Part shown: positions 10,663 through 59,293 of the stretch, one piece after another
How the letters are laid out: each line of letters starts with the position of its first letter
Position numbering within the stretch: the first letter of the stretch is position 1
NCBI GenBank assembly: GCA_008125075.1
Contig: VLTH01000003.1
Location: 220,035 to 284,034 of the forward strand
DNA length: 64,000 nt
Source of the DNA: Acetivibrio alkalicellulosi
GTDB lineage: Bacteria > Bacillota > Clostridia > Acetivibrionales > Acetivibrionaceae
Direction of reading: 5' to 3'
Made by a program: the position numbers and the translations under genes
Notes under the pieces: model-generated
The model's database searches: none
What the model saw: only the letters and a program-made list of their open reading frames with translations
Told to the model about the DNA's origin: nothing

Positions 10663-10809
10663 CTAGGGAATGCTTAAATATAAATTTTACGGGGCCTATT
10701 TGGTATCAAAAAAGTTCAGGGCATTTAGAAGTCTTTAACTCTGTTTTAAGACTTCTAATAAGGCATGTAGTGAAATAGCAGTGGAGTTTATATTTTCAGC
10801 ATCCTAATT
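10663..10809 (+). repeat. Family B palindromic element with inserted loop (B2)
   Basis: The left end, CTAGGGAATGCTTAAATATA, and right end, TATATTTTCAGCATCCTAAT, are imperfect inverted repeats. GGGGCCTATTTGGTATCAAA is the shared centre. A loop insert, AGAAGTCTTTAACTCTGTTT, matches the insert of copy B3. No coding capacity. Confidence 0.65.
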
Positions 10810-13865: not shown

Positions 13866-16820
13866 TTATTCAGGATAAACAATAGATTCAGTTTCATCAT
13901 TATTTCTTACATAATGATGATCAATACTGCTTTCTAGAATATGTCCATATGCCCAGTGGTTCTCACTCACATCAGTAAACGGAACTTTTGCACCTTTTAA
14001 AGGGCCTCTAAAAAGCATTCTGTTTATTATTGTAACAGCTTCAGCTCGTGTTATATTATTGTCTGGTTTGAATAATCTTATATCGTTTTCAATGTATCCT
14101 TCTATTAGTTTTACTCTGTATATTTCTTCGATGAAATTTCGTGCCCAGTGATTTTCAATGTCTGCAAAATTAATAGTAAGAGAATCTATATTTTTAAGTT
14201 TTAAATGATTAGCCAATACTGTTGCAAATTCTGCTCTTGTAATAAAGTTATCAGGTCTGAAGCTTCCGTCTTCATATCCTGTAAAAATGTTTTCTTTTGT
14301 TACAGCTTGAATTTGTTTATAAGCCCAATGCTTTTCACTTAAGTCAGGATAATTCTTAGCTTCTGTAGTAATTTCCTTTAGATCAAGAATTTTAAACATA
14401 ATAGCGGCAACTTCAGCTCTTGTTATTCTATTACCTGGTCTGAATGTATTATCTACATATCCATAAATATATTTTTCGTGAAAATTGTCAGTAAATCTGT
14501 CGGAGTAAAGGAGGAACATTACTGTTGATGAGTCATCATCAGGATTTATTACAATATTGTTACATAAAATTTTTGCAGTGTTGTATGTTTTTATTTCTGC
14601 TTTACTTAGTTGATTTACAGTTACTGTATATGTAATTACTCCTGATTGATTAGCAGAAAGATTGCCTATTTCCCATGATATTGTATTATCATCTACGTCA
14701 CCATCTGAACCGTCTTTAAGAGCAGTATTTTCTGGTATTTGTGCTTCAATCAGAACATCAAGTGCAGTGTTAGATGATTTATTTTTATAAGTTATTGTAA
14801 ATGTAATTGTTTCACCTTCTCCATAAATTGACTTATCAGTTTGTAAGAATACAGATAAATCTACAGGAGAACCAGCGCCACCGGGAATGTCTCTCCTAGG
14901 CTCAGTTATTGAAGATGAAGGTGTAGGTGTAGGTGAAGGACTAGATGTTGGAGTAGGTTCAGGTGTAATAGGTCTATCAGGGTTACTAGGAGGTGCAGGT
15001 GTAGGTGCTGGTTTTTCATTTATAGTAACGTCTTTAGTTGATTGGTCAGAAATGTTACCTGCTTTGTCTACTGTTCTAGCTATTATTCTAGTTGTGCCAA
15101 TTCTAGAAATATCAAATTGATCTTGATATTTTATCCAATTTTTAGTATCAACATCAGTATCAACATCAGTATCAACATCAGTATCAACATCAGTATCAAC
15201 ATCAGTATCAACATCAGTATCAACATCAGTATCAACATCAGTATCAACATCAGTATCAACATCAGTATCAACATCAGTATCAACATCAGCATCAACATCA
15301 GTATCAACATCAGCATCAACATCAGTATCAACATCAGTATCAACATCAGCATCAGCATCAACATCAGCATCAGCATCAGCATCAGCATCAGCATCAACAT
15401 CAGCATCAACATTTACTAAACGGTACTCTGTTCTATCAATACCAGGACCATTATCAACTCCATGCTCAATTGTTACAGTAATTGGAGTTTCAATCGTTTG
15501 ATCTGCACTTGTTTTTATTGTAGGAGGACCAGGAGGAATACGATAAATGTTATCAACTGTATGATCAGCAATTGGGCTTTCGTTTCCTGCTTCATCCCTG
15601 GCTCTAGCATATATAGTGTCGTTATCTTCAGCTTCAAAAGGACCATCATAGTCTCTCCAGTCATCTTCCTCACCAATTTTATATTCTTTATCAACAGCAT
15701 CATCAGGATAAGTTATTATTATAGTTACGTTATCATTTGTAGGTGTATCGCTATCAGGATCTTGAACTATTATTGGTTTATCTGGAGGTGTCCTGTCAAC
15801 TGTAAAAGAAACCTGGAACTGGTCAGAAACAGCTCCTATTTTATCTTCTGACCATAGTGTAATTGTATATTTGCCATCATTAAGGCTTGATATATCAACA
15901 GTATTAATAAAATCATGCTCTACAACAACAAAATTTTCTGTGTCATTATTGATTATAATAGGAGCACTATTGAGTTTAAGTATTTTTCCAAGAATAGACT
16001 CGTCGGTTGCATCAGGATCTTTATCGGAGTCATCAGGCTCTTTATCGGACTCATCAGGCTCTTTATCAGACTCATCAATGATTTTATCTATTGAATAAAA
16101 TATATTGATTTGATCCTTATTATTTTTGTCTGTAACATATCCTTTTATATCAAGAAAATCTTTATTAGTAAAAGAATTACTTAAAGGTAAAGATATATCT
16201 AATTCTGAAGGAACATTTTCTGTATAGTTAACTGTCACATTGTAATAATAGTAGTAGTAATCTTCGTAAACGCTATACCATTGTACATATTCATTTGTTT
16301 TGTCGTCAAAGTAGTTTCTATCAACATCCTTATATAAAATCCCATTATAAGTTTTGTTTCTCCTAAGCTCATCCGGTATCTGGGATATATGTATTTCCTC
16401 AGGGAAGAAGTTAATTGTATTTCTAAGAGCTTCTGAAATTTCCCCTATTTTTTTTTCAGGATCACCCTCTTCTACACCTATCCGTAGTAAAGTAGCTGTT
16501 TTAGGAAGAAATCTTGCTGTTCCCTTGTCAGAATTAGGAACTTCATAAACATCATAGAAATTGTCTAAATCTTCAATACGTACAGTTATTGTATTATCTG
16601 GTTTTGTGAAACCTACTGAATTTGATGCCACAAATCTTCGGACTGGAGTACCAAACTCATCATAACCAATAATTTCAGGGTTAAGATTAATTGAAATTTG
16701 TGAATCGCTGCTGCTAAGAATCTCGAAATCATTTGAAAAAACTACATTACTTGGTACAGAAGTCATTAACATAATGAAGCAAATAATTAAAAGATTAAAC
16801 TTCTTAAAATTTTTTTTCAT
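13866..16820 (-). CDS. SLH-domain surface protein with Asp-rich tandem repeat
   Basis: A 984-residue exported protein. The signal peptide covers about residues 1-29. The middle holds Ig-like beta modules (for example the TPPDKPIIVQDP segment), then about 90 residues of DV/DT/DA repeat (roughly residues 470-560). A Pro/Thr/Ser linker and a DUF11-like module (DLSVFLQTDKSIYGEGETIT) follow. Three C-terminal SLH motifs (YGYVDNTFRPGNRITRAEVA, TGYEDGSFRPDNFITRAEFA, EGYIENDIRLFKPDNNITRA) bind pyruvylated secondary wall polymer and anchor it to the cell surface. No dockerin or cohesin is seen. The Asp repeat may bind calcium; this is inference. The gene has its own terminator. Confidence 0.88.
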   Translation of the reverse strand: MKKNFKKFNLLIICFIMLMTSVPSNVVFSNDFEILSSSDSQISINLNPEIIGYDEFGTPVRRFVASNSVGFTKPDNTITVRIEDLDNFYDVYEVPNSDKGTARFLPKTATLLRIGVEEGDPEKKIGEISEALRNTINFFPEEIHISQIPDELRRNKTYNGILYKDVDRNYFDDKTNEYVQWYSVYEDYYYYYYNVTVNYTENVPSELDISLPLSNSFTNKDFLDIKGYVTDKNNKDQINIFYSIDKIIDESDKEPDESDKEPDDSDKDPDATDESILGKILKLNSAPIIINNDTENFVVVEHDFINTVDISSLNDGKYTITLWSEDKIGAVSDQFQVSFTVDRTPPDKPIIVQDPDSDTPTNDNVTIIITYPDDAVDKEYKIGEEDDWRDYDGPFEAEDNDTIYARARDEAGNESPIADHTVDNIYRIPPGPPTIKTSADQTIETPITVTIEHGVDNGPGIDRTEYRLVNVDADVDADADADADADVDADADVDTDVDTDVDADVDTDVDADVDTDVDTDVDTDVDTDVDTDVDTDVDTDVDTDVDTDVDTDVDTDVDTKNWIKYQDQFDISRIGTTRIIARTVDKAGNISDQSTKDVTINEKPAPTPAPPSNPDRPITPEPTPTSSPSPTPTPSSSITEPRRDIPGGAGSPVDLSVFLQTDKSIYGEGETITFTITYKNKSSNTALDVLIEAQIPENTALKDGSDGDVDDNTISWEIGNLSANQSGVITYTVTVNQLSKAEIKTYNTAKILCNNIVINPDDDSSTVMFLLYSDRFTDNFHEKYIYGYVDNTFRPGNRITRAEVAAIMFKILDLKEITTEAKNYPDLSEKHWAYKQIQAVTKENIFTGYEDGSFRPDNFITRAEFATVLANHLKLKNIDSLTINFADIENHWARNFIEEIYRVKLIEGYIENDIRLFKPDNNITRAEAVTIINRMLFRGPLKGAKVPFTDVSENHWAYGHILESSIDHHYVRNNDETESIVYPE
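15142..15411 (-). repeat. 12-bp coding tandem repeat (Asp-Val/Asp-Thr)
   Basis: About 22 units of ATCAGTATCAAC (plus-strand form) with GTA/GCA variation run through the SLH protein gene and encode DVDT and DADV units. The reading is in frame throughout. Such arrays can change length by slippage, so copy number may differ between strains. Confidence 0.9.
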
Positions 16821-17934: not shown

Positions 17935-18003
17935 AGACATTTCTAAGACAGCTAACAAATTGCACGCGCATTAAATCAAAAGGTTCTATTCTGAACAGTT
18001 TTT
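17935..18003 (+). repeat. Family A element, short form (A1)
   Basis: TAGACATT leads to AACAAATTGCACGCGCATTA, then GGTTCTATTCTGAACAG. The first hairpin and the left half of the second are missing compared with full copies at 55451 and 59129. The same internal shortening is seen in copy A5. Confidence 0.6.
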
Positions 18004-18063
18004 CTATATAAAATATGATATAATTTATTTATTCTATTTTAATTCTGAAAGGTATTTTAATAT

Positions 18064-25619: not shown

Positions 25620-27755
25620 ATGAAAAAACGTAAAACAATTGGAGTTATGATAAACGGTTTAGACGGAAACTATTTGACTTACTTTTGGATTATGGTAAAA
25701 AAGGCTGCTGAAAAGTTTGACTGTAATTTGATAGTTTATGAAGGAAGAGCTTTACAATATAATAAGGAGTCGAATGGTAAGCACTCAATTGTATATGGAT
25801 TTGTTGATAAAAATAGAATTGATGGTCTGATAATGACAAGCTCTGCAATATTAAGTTTTGTAGATGAAAAAAATTATGATAAGTTTTGTAATAGGTATAA
25901 GGATATACCTAAAATATCGATAGGAAAAGTTATACCTTATGCTACTAGTTTGCTTATAAACAATAAAGAAGGTATGAGAAGTTTAATTAAGCATTTGATA
26001 GAGTTTCATAATTATAAAAAAATAGCATTTGTTAAGGGCCCAAAAAACAATCAAGATGCTATAGAAAGATATGAAGCATATGTTGAAGTACTTGAAGAAA
26101 GCAAAATTAGTATAGATAGTAGCCTGGTTTTTGAAGGGGACTTTATTTCAAGGACAGGATACGAACTAATGATAGAAATAATAAAAAAAGAAATTGAATA
26201 TGATGTTATTGTATTTTCAAATGATGATATGGCATTAGGTGCCTTAAAAGCTCTAAAAGAAATGGAAGGAATAGTGAAATTTGATTATTCGAAGAAAAGT
26301 AGAATATGTGGTTTTGATGACTCATTTAATTCAAGTTTAACAACTCCAGCTCTTACAACAGTAAGACAGCCAATAGAAGAACTGTGCTATGCAGCTTTTG
26401 AGCTTCTTATTGATAAGATAAATGGAGAAAGTATTAAGGACATTGTTACCTTTCCTTCTGTTTTAGTAAAGAGAGAGTCATGTGGTTGTAAATATAAAGC
26501 AAAGTCTAATTTGTTTGAAGACAGTTATTTAAGACTTGTACCAACACTGCAAATTCATGAGAATATACAGACATATTCTTTAGAAGATCTTTATAATAAA
26601 GTTACAGGAATATTAAAGCTTTGTCATATAAGAAGGGGTTTTATTTCAACTTATGAAGATGGTATAATTATGTTTGATGACTCCTTTTTATTTAAAAGTT
26701 CTTATGATGTTCCAAAAAGATCTGAACTAAAATATGCCTTTTGTGATGGAGTAAAGCTTGATTTTATAGAAGAGGATATTAAGTATTTTAATACTAAAGA
26801 TATAGTTCCTGACTGTTTTATACCTCATGATAGAAGATTTGTTTATCTTGTGAATCCTTTGTTTTTTAATACAGAACATTTTGGATTTTTATGTGTTGAA
26901 GTTGTAAATGATGATGTTCTAGAGTTTGAACCTTTAAGAGGGCAGGTTAGTAATTCACTAAAGGGCGCAATTATGCTAATGGAACGGGAAAAGATGGAGA
27001 AAGTACTACTTGAAAGTGAGCGATTAGCTTCATTAGGACAGTTAATTGGTGGTATTTCTCACAATCTTATGACACCAATAATGTCTATATCTGGAGTATG
27101 CACAGCTATGGAAGACTTGATAAATGAGTATAAAGAATCTTTAGATGACCCTGATGTAACAATTGAAGACCACCATGAGATTTCAAGAGAAATGAAAACG
27201 TGGATAGAAAGATTAAGAGAATTTAATTCCTATATGTCAACGGTTATAACAACTGTAAAAAGACAGGCAATTCAATTAAATTCAGAAATATCAAATGAAT
27301 TTACAATAGATGAGTTTTTAAGTAAAGTTGATTTTGTAATTAATAATAATATTAAGTTTAATAAATGCAATTTTTCAATCAATACAAGTATTGATAAAAA
27401 AACACAGGTCAAAGGAGATTTGGCAAATTTAATACAAATAATTGACAATCTTATACTAAATGCAATTCAGTCATATGATGAAACAGATAAAAATGCTTAT
27501 AGAGTAGATATGTTTTTGCATGTAGATGGAAATTACTTAGTTATTAAAGTAAGAGATTACGGAAGTGGAATAGCTCTTCAATATAAGGATAAAATATTTA
27601 AACATATGACAACATCAAAGGGAAAAGAGGGTACCGGACTAAGCTTACTTTTGTCTTATTCCACAATTAAAGGTAAATTTGGAGGAGAAATTTGGTTTGA
27701 GGATGCTGTAGGTGGAGGAACTGAATTTAACATATCCATACCATTAAAAAAGTAA
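25620..27755 (+). CDS. LacI-type ligand-binding sensor fused to histidine kinase
   Basis: A 711-residue protein with no signal peptide or membrane helix. Residues 1-295 form a LacI/GalR-type sugar-binding fold: KTIGVMINGLDGNY start, FVKGPKNNQDAIERYEAY, VFSNDDMALGALKALKEM, CGFDDSFNSSLTTPALTTVR. The DNA-binding helix-turn-helix of real LacI proteins is absent. After a GAF-like middle (about 310-450) comes a kinase: SLGQLIGGISHNLMTPIMSI with the phospho-accepting His, then the ATPase N-box (IDNLILNAIQSYDE), the G1 box RDYGSGI and G2 GTGLSL. It probably senses a cytoplasmic sugar. No response regulator is nearby, so the partner is unknown. ATG 25620 follows AAGGAGTGAG. Confidence 0.88.
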   Translation: MKKRKTIGVMINGLDGNYLTYFWIMVKKAAEKFDCNLIVYEGRALQYNKESNGKHSIVYGFVDKNRIDGLIMTSSAILSFVDEKNYDKFCNRYKDIPKISIGKVIPYATSLLINNKEGMRSLIKHLIEFHNYKKIAFVKGPKNNQDAIERYEAYVEVLEESKISIDSSLVFEGDFISRTGYELMIEIIKKEIEYDVIVFSNDDMALGALKALKEMEGIVKFDYSKKSRICGFDDSFNSSLTTPALTTVRQPIEELCYAAFELLIDKINGESIKDIVTFPSVLVKRESCGCKYKAKSNLFEDSYLRLVPTLQIHENIQTYSLEDLYNKVTGILKLCHIRRGFISTYEDGIIMFDDSFLFKSSYDVPKRSELKYAFCDGVKLDFIEEDIKYFNTKDIVPDCFIPHDRRFVYLVNPLFFNTEHFGFLCVEVVNDDVLEFEPLRGQVSNSLKGAIMLMEREKMEKVLLESERLASLGQLIGGISHNLMTPIMSISGVCTAMEDLINEYKESLDDPDVTIEDHHEISREMKTWIERLREFNSYMSTVITTVKRQAIQLNSEISNEFTIDEFLSKVDFVINNNIKFNKCNFSINTSIDKKTQVKGDLANLIQIIDNLILNAIQSYDETDKNAYRVDMFLHVDGNYLVIKVRDYGSGIALQYKDKIFKHMTTSKGKEGTGLSLLLSYSTIKGKFGGEIWFEDAVGGGTEFNISIPLKK

Positions 27756-27756
27756 C

Positions 27757-27893
27757 TGTTTATTCTGAAAATACTTAACCTTTGGATTTTATGCCCCTGC
27801 AATTTGTTTGCTATGGCAAACATGCACATGCGAAGAGGCATTCACACTATAAATTTCATATTATGCTAATTAAATTTATGCTCATGAATGTCT
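27757..27893 (-). repeat. Family A element, inverted orientation (A2)
   Basis: Read on the minus strand it runs GACATTCATGAGCATAAATT, then GCATGTGCATGTTTGCCATA, GCAAACAAATTGCAGGGGCA and TTTTCAGAATAAAC. All three hairpin arms of the family are recognisable although the copy is diverged. It lies between the kinase and ABC exporter genes. Confidence 0.65.
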
Positions 27894-27924
27894 AAATCTA
27901 AACATAGAAAAGGGAGTAGGTAGG

Positions 27925-55450: not shown

Positions 55451-55599
55451 TAGACATTCATGGGCAAAAAGCTTACTAGCAAAAGATGAAAAGTATAGTG
55501 ACAATGAATGTTGCTGCCCGTGTGCATGTTTGCAAAGCAAACAAATTGCACGAGCATAAAATTAAAGGGTCTATTCAAAAAAGTATTTTCAGAATAAAG
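55451..55599 (+). repeat. Family A element (A3)
   Basis: Full-length copy. Hairpin 1: GACATTCAT with ATGAATGT. Hairpin 2: GCCCGTGTGCATGTTTGC with GCAAACAAATTGCACGAGC. Hairpin 3: TCTATTC region with TATTTTCAGAATAAA. It fills the gap between the converging tetR and SLC12-type genes and may act as their terminator. Confidence 0.75.
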
Positions 55600-55607
55600 T
55601 GAACTTT

Positions 55608-57713
55608 CTAAGCAAGTGCATTTTCTAAACCTGAGTCAGAAACAAAAAGAACACTGGTTTGAACTAAGTTTATTATATTAATCATACTTTCGAATTTTAG
55701 TTCATCATCAAAAGAAGATATTCCTAATATGTTTAAATCGCTTGATATACCCGGTAATATTTCGTGGAATTTTCCACTTACAACTAATATTTTGCTATTT
55801 ACTGGAAGTCTTGCGTCTTCAATAAACTTATAAAGCTCACTCTCTGCTTTCTTTATATTATTTTTATTGCTTACCACTCTGCAGAGAGTGACATTGGCGT
55901 TCCAGTTTTTACTTATCTGAAGAGCACTTAAAACAGCTAGATTGTTGTTAGGACTTTTATCTCTAAGCCATAAATGAATATTTCTGTTTTGTCCAAAATT
56001 ATATTTAGGATGAATGTGGAGACACATTAACCCCATTTTCGTATAAGCCATGTTTTTTAATATTTTTTGAAATTTTCTTTGTTTTTCACTATCATCACTT
56101 ATGGTGAAAAATATACTGTTTGGAGGCAAAAAAGTACTGGAGAGACTTTGTAATACAGTTGAAAGGTCGGAGTCAAAATCTCCTCCATTTATAATTACAT
56201 CTTGTGCAAAGAGTTTCTGCTCTTTTAATGGAGAGAGCACTTCTTTAATAACTTCAGTGTTATTTACACTTTGGTTTATTGTTAAATAGTATGCTCTTCC
56301 AGAGGGGTAAATAAAGCTTTTTACAAAAAAGGTTATTCTTTTAAAGTCTTCAGGAGTTTCTACTGGAATAACGATAGAAGGTTTCCAGAGTTTTGGATGA
56401 TATGGCATTGCCATTGCTTTTTGACCAGCCCATTCGGCTATGGAATAAAAAATACCTCCTCTTATGTCACCCCAGGGAGAGTAAATATTCTTTTTTTGTA
56501 GAGTGAAATATATGGCGAAAATAATTATAAATGTTACAATTACAAAATACTTATTAATGAGAAACATACTGAATAAACATCCTACAAGGCCTATGACAGG
56601 TACAATGGTAGAGATGGACAAACTAGGCCTAAAACTAACAATACCAGTTATTTTTTCCAATAATATAACTAAGTTTATCATAGCATATGTTGTGAGGAAA
56701 AATAATGTAAGTATATTTGCTAAGCTGTCTAAGTTACCCAACAAAAGCACACCAGCTGAAAGCAATGATGAAAGAATAATTGCATTTTTAGGTTCTCCCT
56801 TTTTGGTTTTTTTAGATAAAAAGTTATATAGAGGAACTGATCTGTTTTCAGCTAAAGCAGAGAGAGTCCTTGGTGCACTGACAAGAGTCGAAAGGGCAGA
56901 AGATAAAACTGCACCCATAATACCTAGTGTTACAAAAATAGATATAGAACTTATGTCTAGTATAATTAAGTTATTTTCAAGTAACATATTTGTAGGAACT
57001 TTTTGTGAAAATAAAAGGGCAAAGCTACCGTAAACTAAAAAGCCTGTAAAAACTGCTGCTAGTGTTCCTTTAATTATACTTTTTCTAGGATTTTCAAGTT
57101 CTCCGGACATAGTAGCTCCAGTAAGGATGCCTGTTACAGCAGGGAAAAATATTGCAAATGTTTGCCAGAAACTTGCACTTTCAAAGGATCCTATCAATTG
57201 TATATTAGATTCACCGATAGAAGAACCTGAAACAAATGAAAATATTGAAGCTATTACTGCAGCTAAAATTACATACTGTACCTTAAAAGCCAGTTTGGCA
57301 CTGTAAATAGAAAGACCCGCAAGTACTAACCAGGTTATAATGGAAACTATTATTATTGGATGGTGTGGGAAAAATGTTTTCCAAAGTTCTGTAAAGCCGG
57401 TGATGTAAAAAGCTACAGAAATTGCCTGACAAAAATATAGTGGTATTCCTATAGCTCCACCCATCTCTAGACCTAAAGACTGGGAGACAATAGCATATGC
57501 TCCACCCGAACCAATTTTAATATTAGTGAGCATAGAGGACATGGAAAGAGTTGTAGAAATGGTTATAACATGAGCTATACATATAATTGCCAATGCTCCA
57601 ATTAGCCCAGAATTTCCGACTACCCATCCAAGTCTCAAATACATTACAACGCCTAATATTGTTAAAAGTGTTGGAACATAAACACCTTCCAGTGTTTTTA
57701 AACCTTTATTCAT
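55608..57713 (-). CDS. SLC12-type (cation-chloride cotransporter-like) APC permease
   Basis: A 701-residue membrane protein. The start TLEGVYVPTLLTILGVVMYL and RLGWVVGNSGL is the hallmark of the SLC12/CCC branch of the amino-acid-polyamine-cation superfamily. About 12 helices occupy residues 12-420 (GSGGAYAIVSQSLGLEMGGA; FPAVTGILTGATMSGELENP; LVSAPRTLSALAENRSVPLY). A cytoplasmic C-terminal domain of about 270 residues follows, as in eukaryotic NKCC/KCC proteins. The substrate, ions or amino acids, cannot be told from sequence. ATG 57713 follows AGAGGA. Confidence 0.85.
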   Translation of the reverse strand: MNKGLKTLEGVYVPTLLTILGVVMYLRLGWVVGNSGLIGALAIICIAHVITISTTLSMSSMLTNIKIGSGGAYAIVSQSLGLEMGGAIGIPLYFCQAISVAFYITGFTELWKTFFPHHPIIIVSIITWLVLAGLSIYSAKLAFKVQYVILAAVIASIFSFVSGSSIGESNIQLIGSFESASFWQTFAIFFPAVTGILTGATMSGELENPRKSIIKGTLAAVFTGFLVYGSFALLFSQKVPTNMLLENNLIILDISSISIFVTLGIMGAVLSSALSTLVSAPRTLSALAENRSVPLYNFLSKKTKKGEPKNAIILSSLLSAGVLLLGNLDSLANILTLFFLTTYAMINLVILLEKITGIVSFRPSLSISTIVPVIGLVGCLFSMFLINKYFVIVTFIIIFAIYFTLQKKNIYSPWGDIRGGIFYSIAEWAGQKAMAMPYHPKLWKPSIVIPVETPEDFKRITFFVKSFIYPSGRAYYLTINQSVNNTEVIKEVLSPLKEQKLFAQDVIINGGDFDSDLSTVLQSLSSTFLPPNSIFFTISDDSEKQRKFQKILKNMAYTKMGLMCLHIHPKYNFGQNRNIHLWLRDKSPNNNLAVLSALQISKNWNANVTLCRVVSNKNNIKKAESELYKFIEDARLPVNSKILVVSGKFHEILPGISSDLNILGISSFDDELKFESMINIINLVQTSVLFVSDSGLENALA

Positions 57714-57842
57714 CTATTTATCCTCTAATTATTATATTTTTAAATACAATTATACCATATTCGCGTTAGTTGACAAGGTTGAGAAGCCCTTCCTAATAAA
57801 AGATTGAGGATTATATGAAGTTGTATTATAATTGTGTTATTA

Positions 57843-57974
57843 ACCATTCATGAGCAAAAAGCACATTAGCATAAGATGAAAGGTATAGCGGGAATGAATG
57901 TGGCTGCCCATGTGCATGTTTGAAAAGCAAGCAAATTGCACGGGCATATAATTAAAGGTTCTATTCTGAAAAGT
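57843..57974 (+). repeat. Family A element (A4) abutting a truncated gene
   Basis: Contains CATTCATGAGCAAAAAGCAC, ATGAATGTGGCTGCCCATGT, GCAAATTGCACGGGCATATA and GGTTCTATTCTGAAAAG. The mirrored half of hairpin 3 is missing: instead the sequence passes straight into the coding remnant of an ABC transporter gene. Confidence 0.75.
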
Positions 57975-57976
57975 AA

Positions 57977-58072
57977 ATTGAAAATGGCAAAATTGTTGAA
58001 ACAGGCAGTCTAGAAGAACTTTTAGCACGTAATGGCTCATGTAGAAAATTTTTTGGTGAGGTAGTAGAATGA
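57977..58072 (+). pseudogene. Beheaded ABC-transporter ATPase gene (3' end only)
   Basis: An open frame encodes IENGKIVETGSLEELLARNG followed by SCRKFFGEVVE, which is the typical C-terminus of an exporter ABC ATPase (…NGKIVE.G…LL…). The rest of the gene is replaced by family A repeat A4. The TGA stop overlaps the ATG of the next gene, so the two were once an operon. Confidence 0.75.
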
Positions 58073-58452
58073 GAATAGATCATATGGCATTATATACAAA
58101 TAACTTAGAAAGAATGAAAGAATTTTATGTTAAATATTTCGATGCAAAAGTAAATAAATTATATCATAATAAAAGTACTGGACTAAAAACATACTTTTTA
58201 TCTTTTGATGACGATACAAGGCTTGAGATAATGACCAGACCTGGTATTAATGACGAGAAAATAGAAACAATACAATTAGGATATGTTCATTTAGCCTTTA
58301 GTGTAGGATGTAGAGATGGTGTTAATAGATTTACTGATATTTTAAGAAGAGAGGGTTTTATAGTTATAAACAATCCAAGGATTACAGGAGATGGATATTA
58401 TGAGAGTGTTGTGTTAGATCCTGATGGAAATCAAATTGAAATTGTAGAATAA
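58069..58452 (+). CDS. VOC-superfamily (glyoxalase-like) protein
   Basis: A 127-residue protein of the vicinal oxygen chelate fold. MRIDHMALYTNNLERMKEFY starts the first beta-alpha-beta-beta-beta module with His5 as metal ligand; RLEIMTRPG supplies Glu; YVHLAFSVG gives the second His; DPDGNQIEIVE ends with the terminal Glu. These are the four ligands expected of glyoxalase I, dioxygenase or fosfomycin-resistance relatives. The substrate is unknown. Its start overlaps the stop of a truncated ABC transporter gene. The radical SAM gene follows closely. Confidence 0.88.
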   Translation: MRIDHMALYTNNLERMKEFYVKYFDAKVNKLYHNKSTGLKTYFLSFDDDTRLEIMTRPGINDEKIETIQLGYVHLAFSVGCRDGVNRFTDILRREGFIVINNPRITGDGYYESVVLDPDGNQIEIVE

Positions 58453-58483
58453 TTAATTTTGTATTATGAAAGGGTGCAGGTGC

Positions 58484-59071
58484 TTGGTTATTACTTATGA
58501 ACTAAAGGGAAACTTATATATTAATATAACAAACAAGTGCTCAAACAGATGCAGTTTTTGTATAAGAGATATTAAAGACGGCTTTTTAAATGACTTATGG
58601 CTAGAGAGAGAACCCTCAATTGAGGATATTAAATGTGATATTCTTAAAAGGGATTTAGAGAAGTACAATCAACTAGTATTTTGTGGTTTTGGAGAGCCCT
58701 TTGAACGATTTGATACACTGATTGAAGTATGTAAAAGAGTTAAAGAAAAAAGTAGTATACACATTAGGATAAATACAAATGGGTTAGCAAATTTAATATA
58801 TAAAAGTGACGTAACGCCTTATCTTGAAGGGTTAGTGGACAGCTTGTCTGTAAGCCTGAATGCACCAAATGCTAAGGAGTACGATGAAATATGCTCAAGT
58901 GTATTTGGTCTTGATGCATTCCCAGCGATACTTGATTTTATAGATAAGGCTAAAAGATATGTTAGGGATATACAGGTATCTGTAGTAGATTGTCTTTTGC
59001 CCGAAAAAATACAAGAGTGCAACAAAATAGCTCAAGAACTTAATGTAAAGATTAAAATTAGACATTTATGA
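58484..59071 (+). CDS. Radical SAM protein of TatD-associated type
   Basis: A 195-residue small radical SAM protein. CSNRCSFCIRD (CxxxCxxC) binds the 4Fe-4S cluster that cleaves S-adenosylmethionine; LVFCGFGEPFERFD is the GGE-like motif; IRINTNGLANL and VSLNAPNAKEYD complete the half barrel. Length and pattern fit the short TatD-linked radical SAM group, though no tatD gene is in the window. TTG 58484 is preferred because AAAGGG lies nine bases upstream and homologues start at this point; ATG 58466 is possible. The stop codon and the last few codons lie in family A repeat A5. Confidence 0.82.
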   Translation: MVITYELKGNLYINITNKCSNRCSFCIRDIKDGFLNDLWLEREPSIEDIKCDILKRDLEKYNQLVFCGFGEPFERFDTLIEVCKRVKEKSSIHIRINTNGLANLIYKSDVTPYLEGLVDSLSVSLNAPNAKEYDEICSSVFGLDAFPAILDFIDKAKRYVRDIQVSVVDCLLPEKIQECNKIAQELNVKIKIRHL

Positions 59072-59128
59072 GCAAATTGCACGGGCATAAAATTAAAATA
59101 GTTTATTTCTGAAAAGAATTTTCATAAT
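59059..59128 (+). repeat. Family A element, short form (A5)
   Basis: TAGACATTTATGAGC joins directly to AAATTGCACGGGCATAAAAT, then TTTCTGAAAAGAATTTTCAT. The same internal deletion as in A1. It supplies the TGA stop of the radical SAM gene and lies head-to-tail with A6. Confidence 0.7.
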
Positions 59129-59287
59129 AGACATTCATGAGCAAAAATTCACCAACATAGGAGGAAAAGTATAATGGGAATGAATGTCGCTGCCCATGTG
59201 CATGTTTGCGACAGCAAACAAATTGCACGGGCATAAAATTAAAATAGTTTATTCTGAAAAGAATTTTCAGAATAAACATTTATGAGC
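59129..59287 (+). repeat. Family A element (A6)
   Basis: Best-preserved copy. Hairpin 1: GACATTCAT with ATGAATGTC. Hairpin 2: GCCCATGTGCATGTTTGC with GCAAACAAATTGCACGGGC. Hairpin 3: TTTATTCTGAAAA with TTTTCAGAATAAA. It ends at the 3' side of the cca gene. Confidence 0.8.
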
Positions 59288-59293
59288 AACATA

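What the first reader, a model, noticed from the sequence alone, without database searches (positions are those of the whole stretch)
55451..59287. Dispersed intergenic element with three conserved hairpins (family A)
Copies at 17935, 27757 (inverted), 55451, 57843, 59059 and 59129 share a 150-base architecture: GACATTCAT/ATGAATGTC; GCCCATGTGCATGTTTGC/GCAAACAAATTGCACGGGC; TTTATTCTGAAAA/TTTTCAGAATAAA. Hairpin arms are kept while spacers drift, and two copies share the same internal deletion. There is no coding capacity. This is the pattern of a mobile non-autonomous element or of a structured RNA family, and hairpin 3 could serve as a terminator. I know of no named family that matches.
Basis: partly seen in the sequence, partly recalled or inferred. 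Interest (0 to 1): 0.72.

Follow-up and report, generated by a model that had tools for sequence, protein, structure and literature searches.

The report
Mobile three-hairpin repeat in Clostridia
This clostridial genome carries well over 150 copies of a 150-base DNA element that folds into three hairpins and has inserted at TA sites between genes; its middle hairpin recurs in other repeats scattered through many Clostridia, in some of them as the leader in front of unrelated genes, and no family in the reference library of RNA families matches it.

Summary
Both arms of all three hairpins change together beyond all shuffles. Two details are wrong: copies 17935 and 59059 do not share a deletion, and hairpin 3 is not a terminator on its own strand. 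The element is mobile: congeners have empty sites at two copies. It lands at TA dinucleotides; TA plus its first base G makes TAG, so 15 of 97 copies act as the stop codon of the upstream gene. Copies follow the direction of transcription (56:11), not of replication. There are no terminal inverted repeats and no linked transposase. Only one congener keeps a full-length relative. The unexpected part is hairpin 2. A model of it alone finds multi-copy repeats across the order, and sporadically the class Clostridia, with the same bulged hairpin between different flanking palindromes. In five genomes of the order it opens a leader that ends at the start codon of unrelated genes, with the ribosome site inside a helix. 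No Rfam family matches. I read it as a new small mobile repeat, dispersed as DNA and folding in mRNA. The mobilising enzyme and any regulatory effect are inferred, not shown.

The parts
55451..55596 (+). full-length copy: H1 arms 55453-55461 / 55504-55512, H2 55515-55556, H3 55570-55596; starts 9 bases after the stop of a TetR-type ORF
57841..57987 (+). full-length but decayed copy (TAACCATTCATGAGC start; hairpin 3 right arm degenerate), between a divergent transporter ORF and a glyoxalase-family ORF
59059..59129 (+). copy with internal deletion (H1 5' arm joined to H2 3' arm; H3 kept); its TGA at 59069-59071 is the stop codon of the radical-SAM ORF 58466-59071
59128..59276 (+). full-length copy in direct tandem with the previous one, sharing the TA; H1 59130-59138 / 59180-59188, H2 59191-59233, H3 59248-59276
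59273..59289 (+). left-end stub of a further unit (TAAACATTTATGAGCAA) overlapping the end of the previous copy
17935..18016 (+). left-truncated copy: right half of H2, linker, degenerate H3
27756..27894 (-). inverted copy; starts 1 base after the stop of the ORF ending at 27755; 5' arm of H3 deleted
59191..59233 (+). best window example of the conserved core, hairpin 2 (TGCCC AT GTGCA T GTTTGC gaca GCAAAC AAAT TGCAC GGGCA)

Best explanation
It is a non-autonomous small interspersed mobile element (MITE-like, but without terminal inverted repeats) of about 148 bp: TA-GACATTC...[H1][H2][H3]...CAGAA-TA. Shown: it is dispersed in about 200 places in one genome; it inserts at TA dinucleotides (either duplicating TA or carrying one TA); congeners have the empty sites; insertion into a stop codon recreates TAG; copies also pile up in tandem by sharing the TA; copies that lie between genes of one strand keep the direction of those genes. 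Inferred: it is moved in trans by an enzyme that recognises the folded element, most likely through the conserved bulged hairpin 2, because that is the part kept across genera while the flanking palindromes are swapped; and once inserted it is transcribed within operons, where the three hairpins form in the mRNA. The sense orientation is tolerated or useful, as for ERIC, BOX or Correia repeats (processing, stability or coupling of neighbouring cistrons).
For: Copy number and controls. Covariation. Empty sites: at one copy G000 reads TATAC-TA|GACATT...GAGAA|TA-AGGAAT, where G001 and G002 read TATACACTAAGC and G004 TATGCATTAAAT; at a second copy G002 reads TTGGAAAGAATAAAGGAG with no insert. Stop codons: 15 of 97 left ends supply TAG to an ORF of at least 60 codons and 5 more supply TGA at bases 11-13. 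Orientation: 56 of 67 copies between same-strand ORFs are co-directional; where those ORFs run against the leading strand the copy still follows the ORFs, 8:2. Lineage-specific burst: 4 congeners hold at most one copy. No Rfam family.
Against: No enzyme identified: the five Y1-type transposase matches have no element at their ends, apart from a remnant near one. The ends are not inverted repeats, which a TA-duplicating DDE transposase would need. Many copies have mutated pairs, and G-T and A-C mispairs are about equal (88 and 76), so most copies look like decaying fossils rather than RNAs under selection. An old relative sits at an orthologous site by a tRNA gene in G004, and G000 has a decayed element there too, so not every copy is recent.
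Confidence: 0.66

Rival explanations
1. It is primarily a cis-regulatory or mRNA-processing RNA element, copied because it is useful; mobility is secondary. The relatives that end at start codons with the Shine-Dalgarno region in a helix would be the functional prototype, and the window copies dispersed derivatives.
For: Sense orientation 56:11. In the genomes G015, G018, G023, G025 and G048 the core opens a leader reading ...TTTAACCCCAT...ATGGAGGTTAAA-ATG (variants TTTAAGC/GCTTAAA and TTTACCC/GGGTAAA covary) in front of unrelated genes. Hairpin 2 unpaired A8 and T15 are invariant in 51 of 51 distinct cores.
Against: In G000 copies lie a median of 89 bases before the next ORF, carry no ribosome site and are mostly decayed. 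No expression data.
Confidence: 0.2
2. It is a REP/REPIN-like system: single-stranded hairpins copied by a resident RAYT-type Y1 transposase (three 271-276 aa Y1 proteins are in the genome).
For: Three single-copy RAYT-like Y1 ORFs; bulged hairpin, high copy number, intergenic, no inverted-repeat ends. Hairpin-bulge-hairpin REPs exist in TnpA-REP subclass 2.2 (PMC6006769).
Against: No element at any Y1 gene within 1.5 kb apart from a remnant near a truncated one. No GTAG/GTGG foot. Strand follows transcription, not the lagging strand. The unit is 148 bp with three hairpins.
Confidence: 0.12
3. It is a MITE of a TA-duplicating DDE transposon (IS630/Tc1-mariner type) whose inverted-repeat ends have eroded.
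For: TA on both sides of copies and at the empty sites; RUP, ERIC and Correia also have TA at their ends (PMC2229807).
Against: The ends GACATTCATGAGC and TTCTGAAAA are conserved but not inverted copies of each other; erosion cannot explain ends that are the best-kept parts. IS630-type transposases were not searched for.
Confidence: 0.12

Closest known systems
ERIC (enterobacterial repetitive intergenic consensus)
   Same: About 130 bp, intergenic, TA at the ends, transcribed within operons, tens to hundreds of copies, structured RNA; effect on upstream mRNA depends on orientation (PMC2229807, PMC10969869).
   Different: ERIC folds as one long hairpin with inverted-repeat ends and belongs to enterobacteria and Vibrio; here three separate hairpins, no inverted-repeat ends, unrelated sequence.
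BOX elements of Streptococcus pneumoniae
   Same: Modular small repeat of several hairpins in a low-GC Firmicute, intergenic, expressed; one case fused to leader RNAs (PMC3049150).
   Different: boxA/boxC ends resemble an IS and the middle module varies in number; here the middle module is the most widely conserved part. No sequence relation was tested beyond Rfam.
CIR (Caulobacter intergenic repeat)
   Same: Two independent long stem-loops joined by a linker, TA at the termini, no terminal inverted repeat (PMC2229807).
   Different: Carries a GANTC methylation site; alphaproteobacteria; two hairpins rather than three.
RUP / Correia (NEMIS)
   Same: Small, TA target, dispersed non-autonomous elements (PMC2229807).
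   Different: Have inverted-repeat ends (9 and 24 bp); RUP is assigned to a resident IS630. None was found here.
REP/REPIN with RAYT
   Same: Hairpin repeats in hundreds of intergenic copies, possibly moved by a resident Y1 enzyme.
   Different: No GTAG/GTGG foot, no REPtron, three-hairpin 148-bp unit inserted at TA.

Membership tests
Small interspersed repeat / non-autonomous mobile element (general kind) | Many dispersed, mostly intergenic copies without a gene | tested here: met
Small interspersed repeat / non-autonomous mobile element (general kind) | Insertion shown by empty sites in relatives | tested here: met
   two copies, three relatives
MITE (strict sense) | Terminal inverted repeats | tested here: not met
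   ends GACATTCATGAGC and TTCTGAAAA (reverse complement of right end) do not match
MITE (strict sense) | Target-site duplication | tested here: inconclusive
   TA on both sides, but one TA could belong to the element
MITE (strict sense) | Resident autonomous element sharing the ends | tested here: inconclusive
   no element at the ends of Y1 transposases or at ten of the RT genes; DDE transposases not searched
REP/REPIN | GTAG/GTGG at the hairpin foot and RAYT gene flanked by copies | tested here: not met
ERIC | Single long hairpin formed by the two ends | tested here: not met
   three separate hairpins; not compared with ERIC by sequence search
Any Rfam 15 family | Match at gathering score | tested here: not met
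   window; relatives
Structured RNA with SD-sequestering leader (relatives only) | Helix pairing the ribosome-binding site, supported by covariation | tested here: inconclusive
   three covarying variants seen by eye in 14 aligned leaders; no statistical test made
Structured RNA (window family) | Transcription and folding in the cell | not testable with these tools
   no RNA-seq or probing data

The most novel reading that the evidence does not exclude
Hairpin 2 is a class-wide nucleic-acid module with invariant unpaired bases, recognised by one conserved but unknown protein, around which Clostridia repeatedly build new three-hairpin mobile elements with fresh flanking palindromes; in one branch the same module has become a mobile translation-control leader placed in front of many unrelated genes.
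Probability: 0.25. Interest if true: 0.82.

Novelty: new variant of a known kind. Interest (0 to 1): 0.6.

Why it matters
Small mobile repeats are usually species-level curiosities defined by their ends. Here the ends and flanking hairpins differ between genomes while a 47-base bulged hairpin with invariant unpaired bases persists across an order and, sporadically, a class. That gives a search handle for the unknown mobilising or binding protein, and it connects a selfish-looking intergenic repeat with leader-like copies that abut start codons and bury the ribosome site. If the link is real, one can test how a mobile hairpin becomes a regulatory leader. The TA-to-TAG insertion at stop codons is also a simple explanation of how such a repeat can spread into operons without breaking genes.

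Tried and rejected
Named-genome scan with an exact hairpin-2 pattern: no hit. Protein-anchored scan for a named relative: nearest is Herbivorax sp. ANBcel31 at 88% protein identity, with no element by the gene and no synteny. RNAalifold on the 64-copy alignment returned no pairs, so a stated structure was counted instead. Group II intron domain V, integron attC and IS605 ends were considered for hairpin 2 and dropped: no catalytic triad, no core boxes and no guide tetranucleotide seen (from general knowledge, not tested by model). G-T versus A-C mispairs as a test of the RNA strand: 88 versus 76 in G000 and 16 versus 9 across genera, no clear signal. Replication-strand bias as the cause of the orientation bias: rejected. 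Phage and plasmid collections: no match; viral contigs: none. Reverse transcriptases as the partner: many exist (20 matches), and no element within 1.5 kb of the ten fetched. Family tree of the copies not made.
Full report
WHAT WAS CHECKED. The window lies in a 5.3-Mb, three-contig genome (G000; window = C3:220035-284034). One flanking protein has its nearest named relative in Herbivorax sp. ANBcel31 (88% identity), so the organism is close to Acetivibrionaceae. The consensus, from 64 full-length copies, is TAGACATTCATGAGCAAAAAGCTCACCAACATAGGATGAAAAGTATAATGnGAATGAATGTC TCTGCGCATGTGCATGTTTGCGAAGCAAACAAATTGCACGCGCATAAAATCAAAGG TTCTATTCTGAAAAGTATTTTCAGAATAGA.

COPY NUMBER. The left end occurs 206 times with up to two mismatches, against 2 for the reversed control. 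The hairpin-3 palindrome occurs 96 times against 0, with some sites counted on both strands. A covariance model matched every one of the 150 candidates it was allowed to score. A sequence profile found 158 distinct full or partial copies in 509 kb of fetched sequence. Of four congeners, only G004 has a full-length relative (70% identity, E 4e-7).

Copy 59059 has an internal deletion; copy 17935 is simply truncated on the left, beginning inside hairpin 2. They do not share a deletion. Hairpin 3 is an AT-rich palindrome without a following T run on its own strand; the only terminator-like call within a copy is on the opposite strand.

STRUCTURE. With the three hairpins written down as a structure of 38 pairs, 89% of cells are paired (shuffles 85.8 +/- 0.3), 65 cells have changes on both sides (shuffles 19.9 +/- 4.1), and slid controls fall to 30-49% paired. 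Clear swaps are A-T to C-G at columns 88/110 (14 copies), G-C to A-T at 79/116 and T-A to A-T at 140/163. G-T and A-C mispairs are about equal (88 and 76). That fits neutral decay of individual copies and gives no evidence for an RNA rather than a DNA strand.

MOBILITY AND TARGET. Joined flanks of four copies were searched in the congeners. At the copy behind an ftsL-like ORF, three congeners show the uninterrupted site: G000 TATAC-TA|GACATT...GAGAA|TA-AGGAAT versus TATACACTAAGC (G001, G002) and TATGCATTAAAT (G004). At a second copy G002 reads TTGGAAAGAATAAAGGAG. The TA is on both sides of nearly every full copy; whether it is a duplication or part of the element cannot be decided. Because the element begins with G, insertion into the TA of a stop codon recreates TAG: 15 of 97 non-tandem left ends are the stop codon of an ORF of 60 codons or more, and 5 more supply the TGA at bases 11-13, as copy 59059 does in the window. 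Tandem copies share the TA.

ORIENTATION. Among copies between ORFs of one strand, 56 of 67 read in the same direction. Where the ORFs are on the leading strand the ratio is 48:9, and where they are on the lagging strand 8:2. The bias therefore follows transcription and not replication. Gene calls were simple ORFs, not an annotation.

A SHARED ANCIENT SITE. Beside a tRNA gene, G004 has a full relative, G001-G003 keep only the hairpin-3 part, and G000 has a decayed element interrupted by a second repeat. The family, or its progenitor, predates the genus; the burst is in G000.

THE CORE BEYOND THE GENUS. The model built only from G000 copies gave weak hits in three other families of the order (E 6e-5 to 8e-4 per genome, several with more than one copy). 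They kept hairpin 2 but had other palindromes beside it. A 47-base model of hairpin 2 alone (its 16-sequence seed includes four of those loci) matches 13 of 58 genomes of the order at E up to 0.01 (G000 105 copies, G044 23, G023 13, G039 6, G014 5). It also matches 14 of 391 genomes of the class at E up to 1e-4, including genera absent from the seed with E as low as 5e-12. One of these class hits, in G065, does not look like the core and I left it out. In 51 distinct cores 460 of 500 outer-stem cells are Watson-Crick (shuffles 368 +/- 6, largest 385); the bulged A8 and T15 are invariant (this alignment is fitted to the model). A palindrome ends at the 5' foot of the core far more often than at random places (score of 10 or more: 35% versus 0.5%), and one follows (58% versus 0.8%). 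None of the relatives tested matches Rfam at this element.

LEADER-LIKE RELATIVES. In G015, G018, G023, G025 and G048 the core opens a roughly 200-base sequence that ends at the start codon of unrelated genes (by eye fliQ-, thiI-, glycerate kinase- and ABC-permease-like; no family search was run on them). The last helix pairs TTTAACC with GGTTAAA around the ribosome site, with covarying variants TTTAAGC/GCTTAAA and TTTACCC/GGGTAAA. This is read by eye from 14 sequences and was not tested statistically. A second relative (G014, G015, G018, G021, G025) has its right end against the T run of an opposite-strand intrinsic terminator in at least seven copies, also read by eye.

WHAT REMAINS INFERENCE. 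No enzyme is known. The Y1 genes carry no copies at their ends, and the one remnant lies near a truncated Y1 gene. DDE transposases were not searched. Transcription, folding in the cell and any effect on neighbours are not shown. That the cores of different genera are homologous, rather than convergent on one binding protein, rests on sequence and structure similarity only.

VERDICT. A real, mobile, structured small repeat; ordinary in kind (ERIC/BOX/CIR-like) but without inverted-repeat ends, with an unusually wide-ranging core hairpin that makes it more than a local repeat.

Noticed in passing
L184:1370-1470 (G000:C2, about 552.8 kb); L069; L110; L126; weak match window 10768-10791: A second dispersed repeat family (AGGATTAAATATTACTTCCACTTTTCACGG...AAATAAGGCCTGAAGTGAAATAATAGTTATATTTT) lies next to or inside several copies of the three-hairpin element.
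   Followed up: partly
L207, L208, L214, L197, L194, L205, L213: In other genera a longer relative with the same core hairpin ends exactly at the T run of opposite-strand intrinsic terminators, as if terminators were its target.
   Followed up: partly
L119:1500-1562: A near-perfect 62-base palindrome made of two left ends of the element head to head (TAAACATTCATGAGCATAAAAGCTCACCAAC / reverse complement).
   Followed up: no
L054, L059, L061, L082, L099, L107: Several copies stop at nearly the same point, just before hairpin 3 (after AAATCAAAGGTT or close to it), and hairpin 3 also occurs alone (L052, L075, L105): hairpin 3 may be a separable module.
   Followed up: no
window 15072-15479: A 12-base tandem array coding for a DVDTDV repeat inside an S-layer-homology ORF (13866-16820, minus strand).
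   Followed up: partly
G000:C2:2034694 and 2040375 (L099): The same copy with the same flanks occurs twice 5.7 kb apart, so a segment of several kb is duplicated; an N stretch follows one copy.
   Followed up: no
L192, L204, L212, L252, L262, L263: In other genera too, second tandem units break off inside the first strand of the core hairpin, a recurrent truncation point.
   Followed up: no
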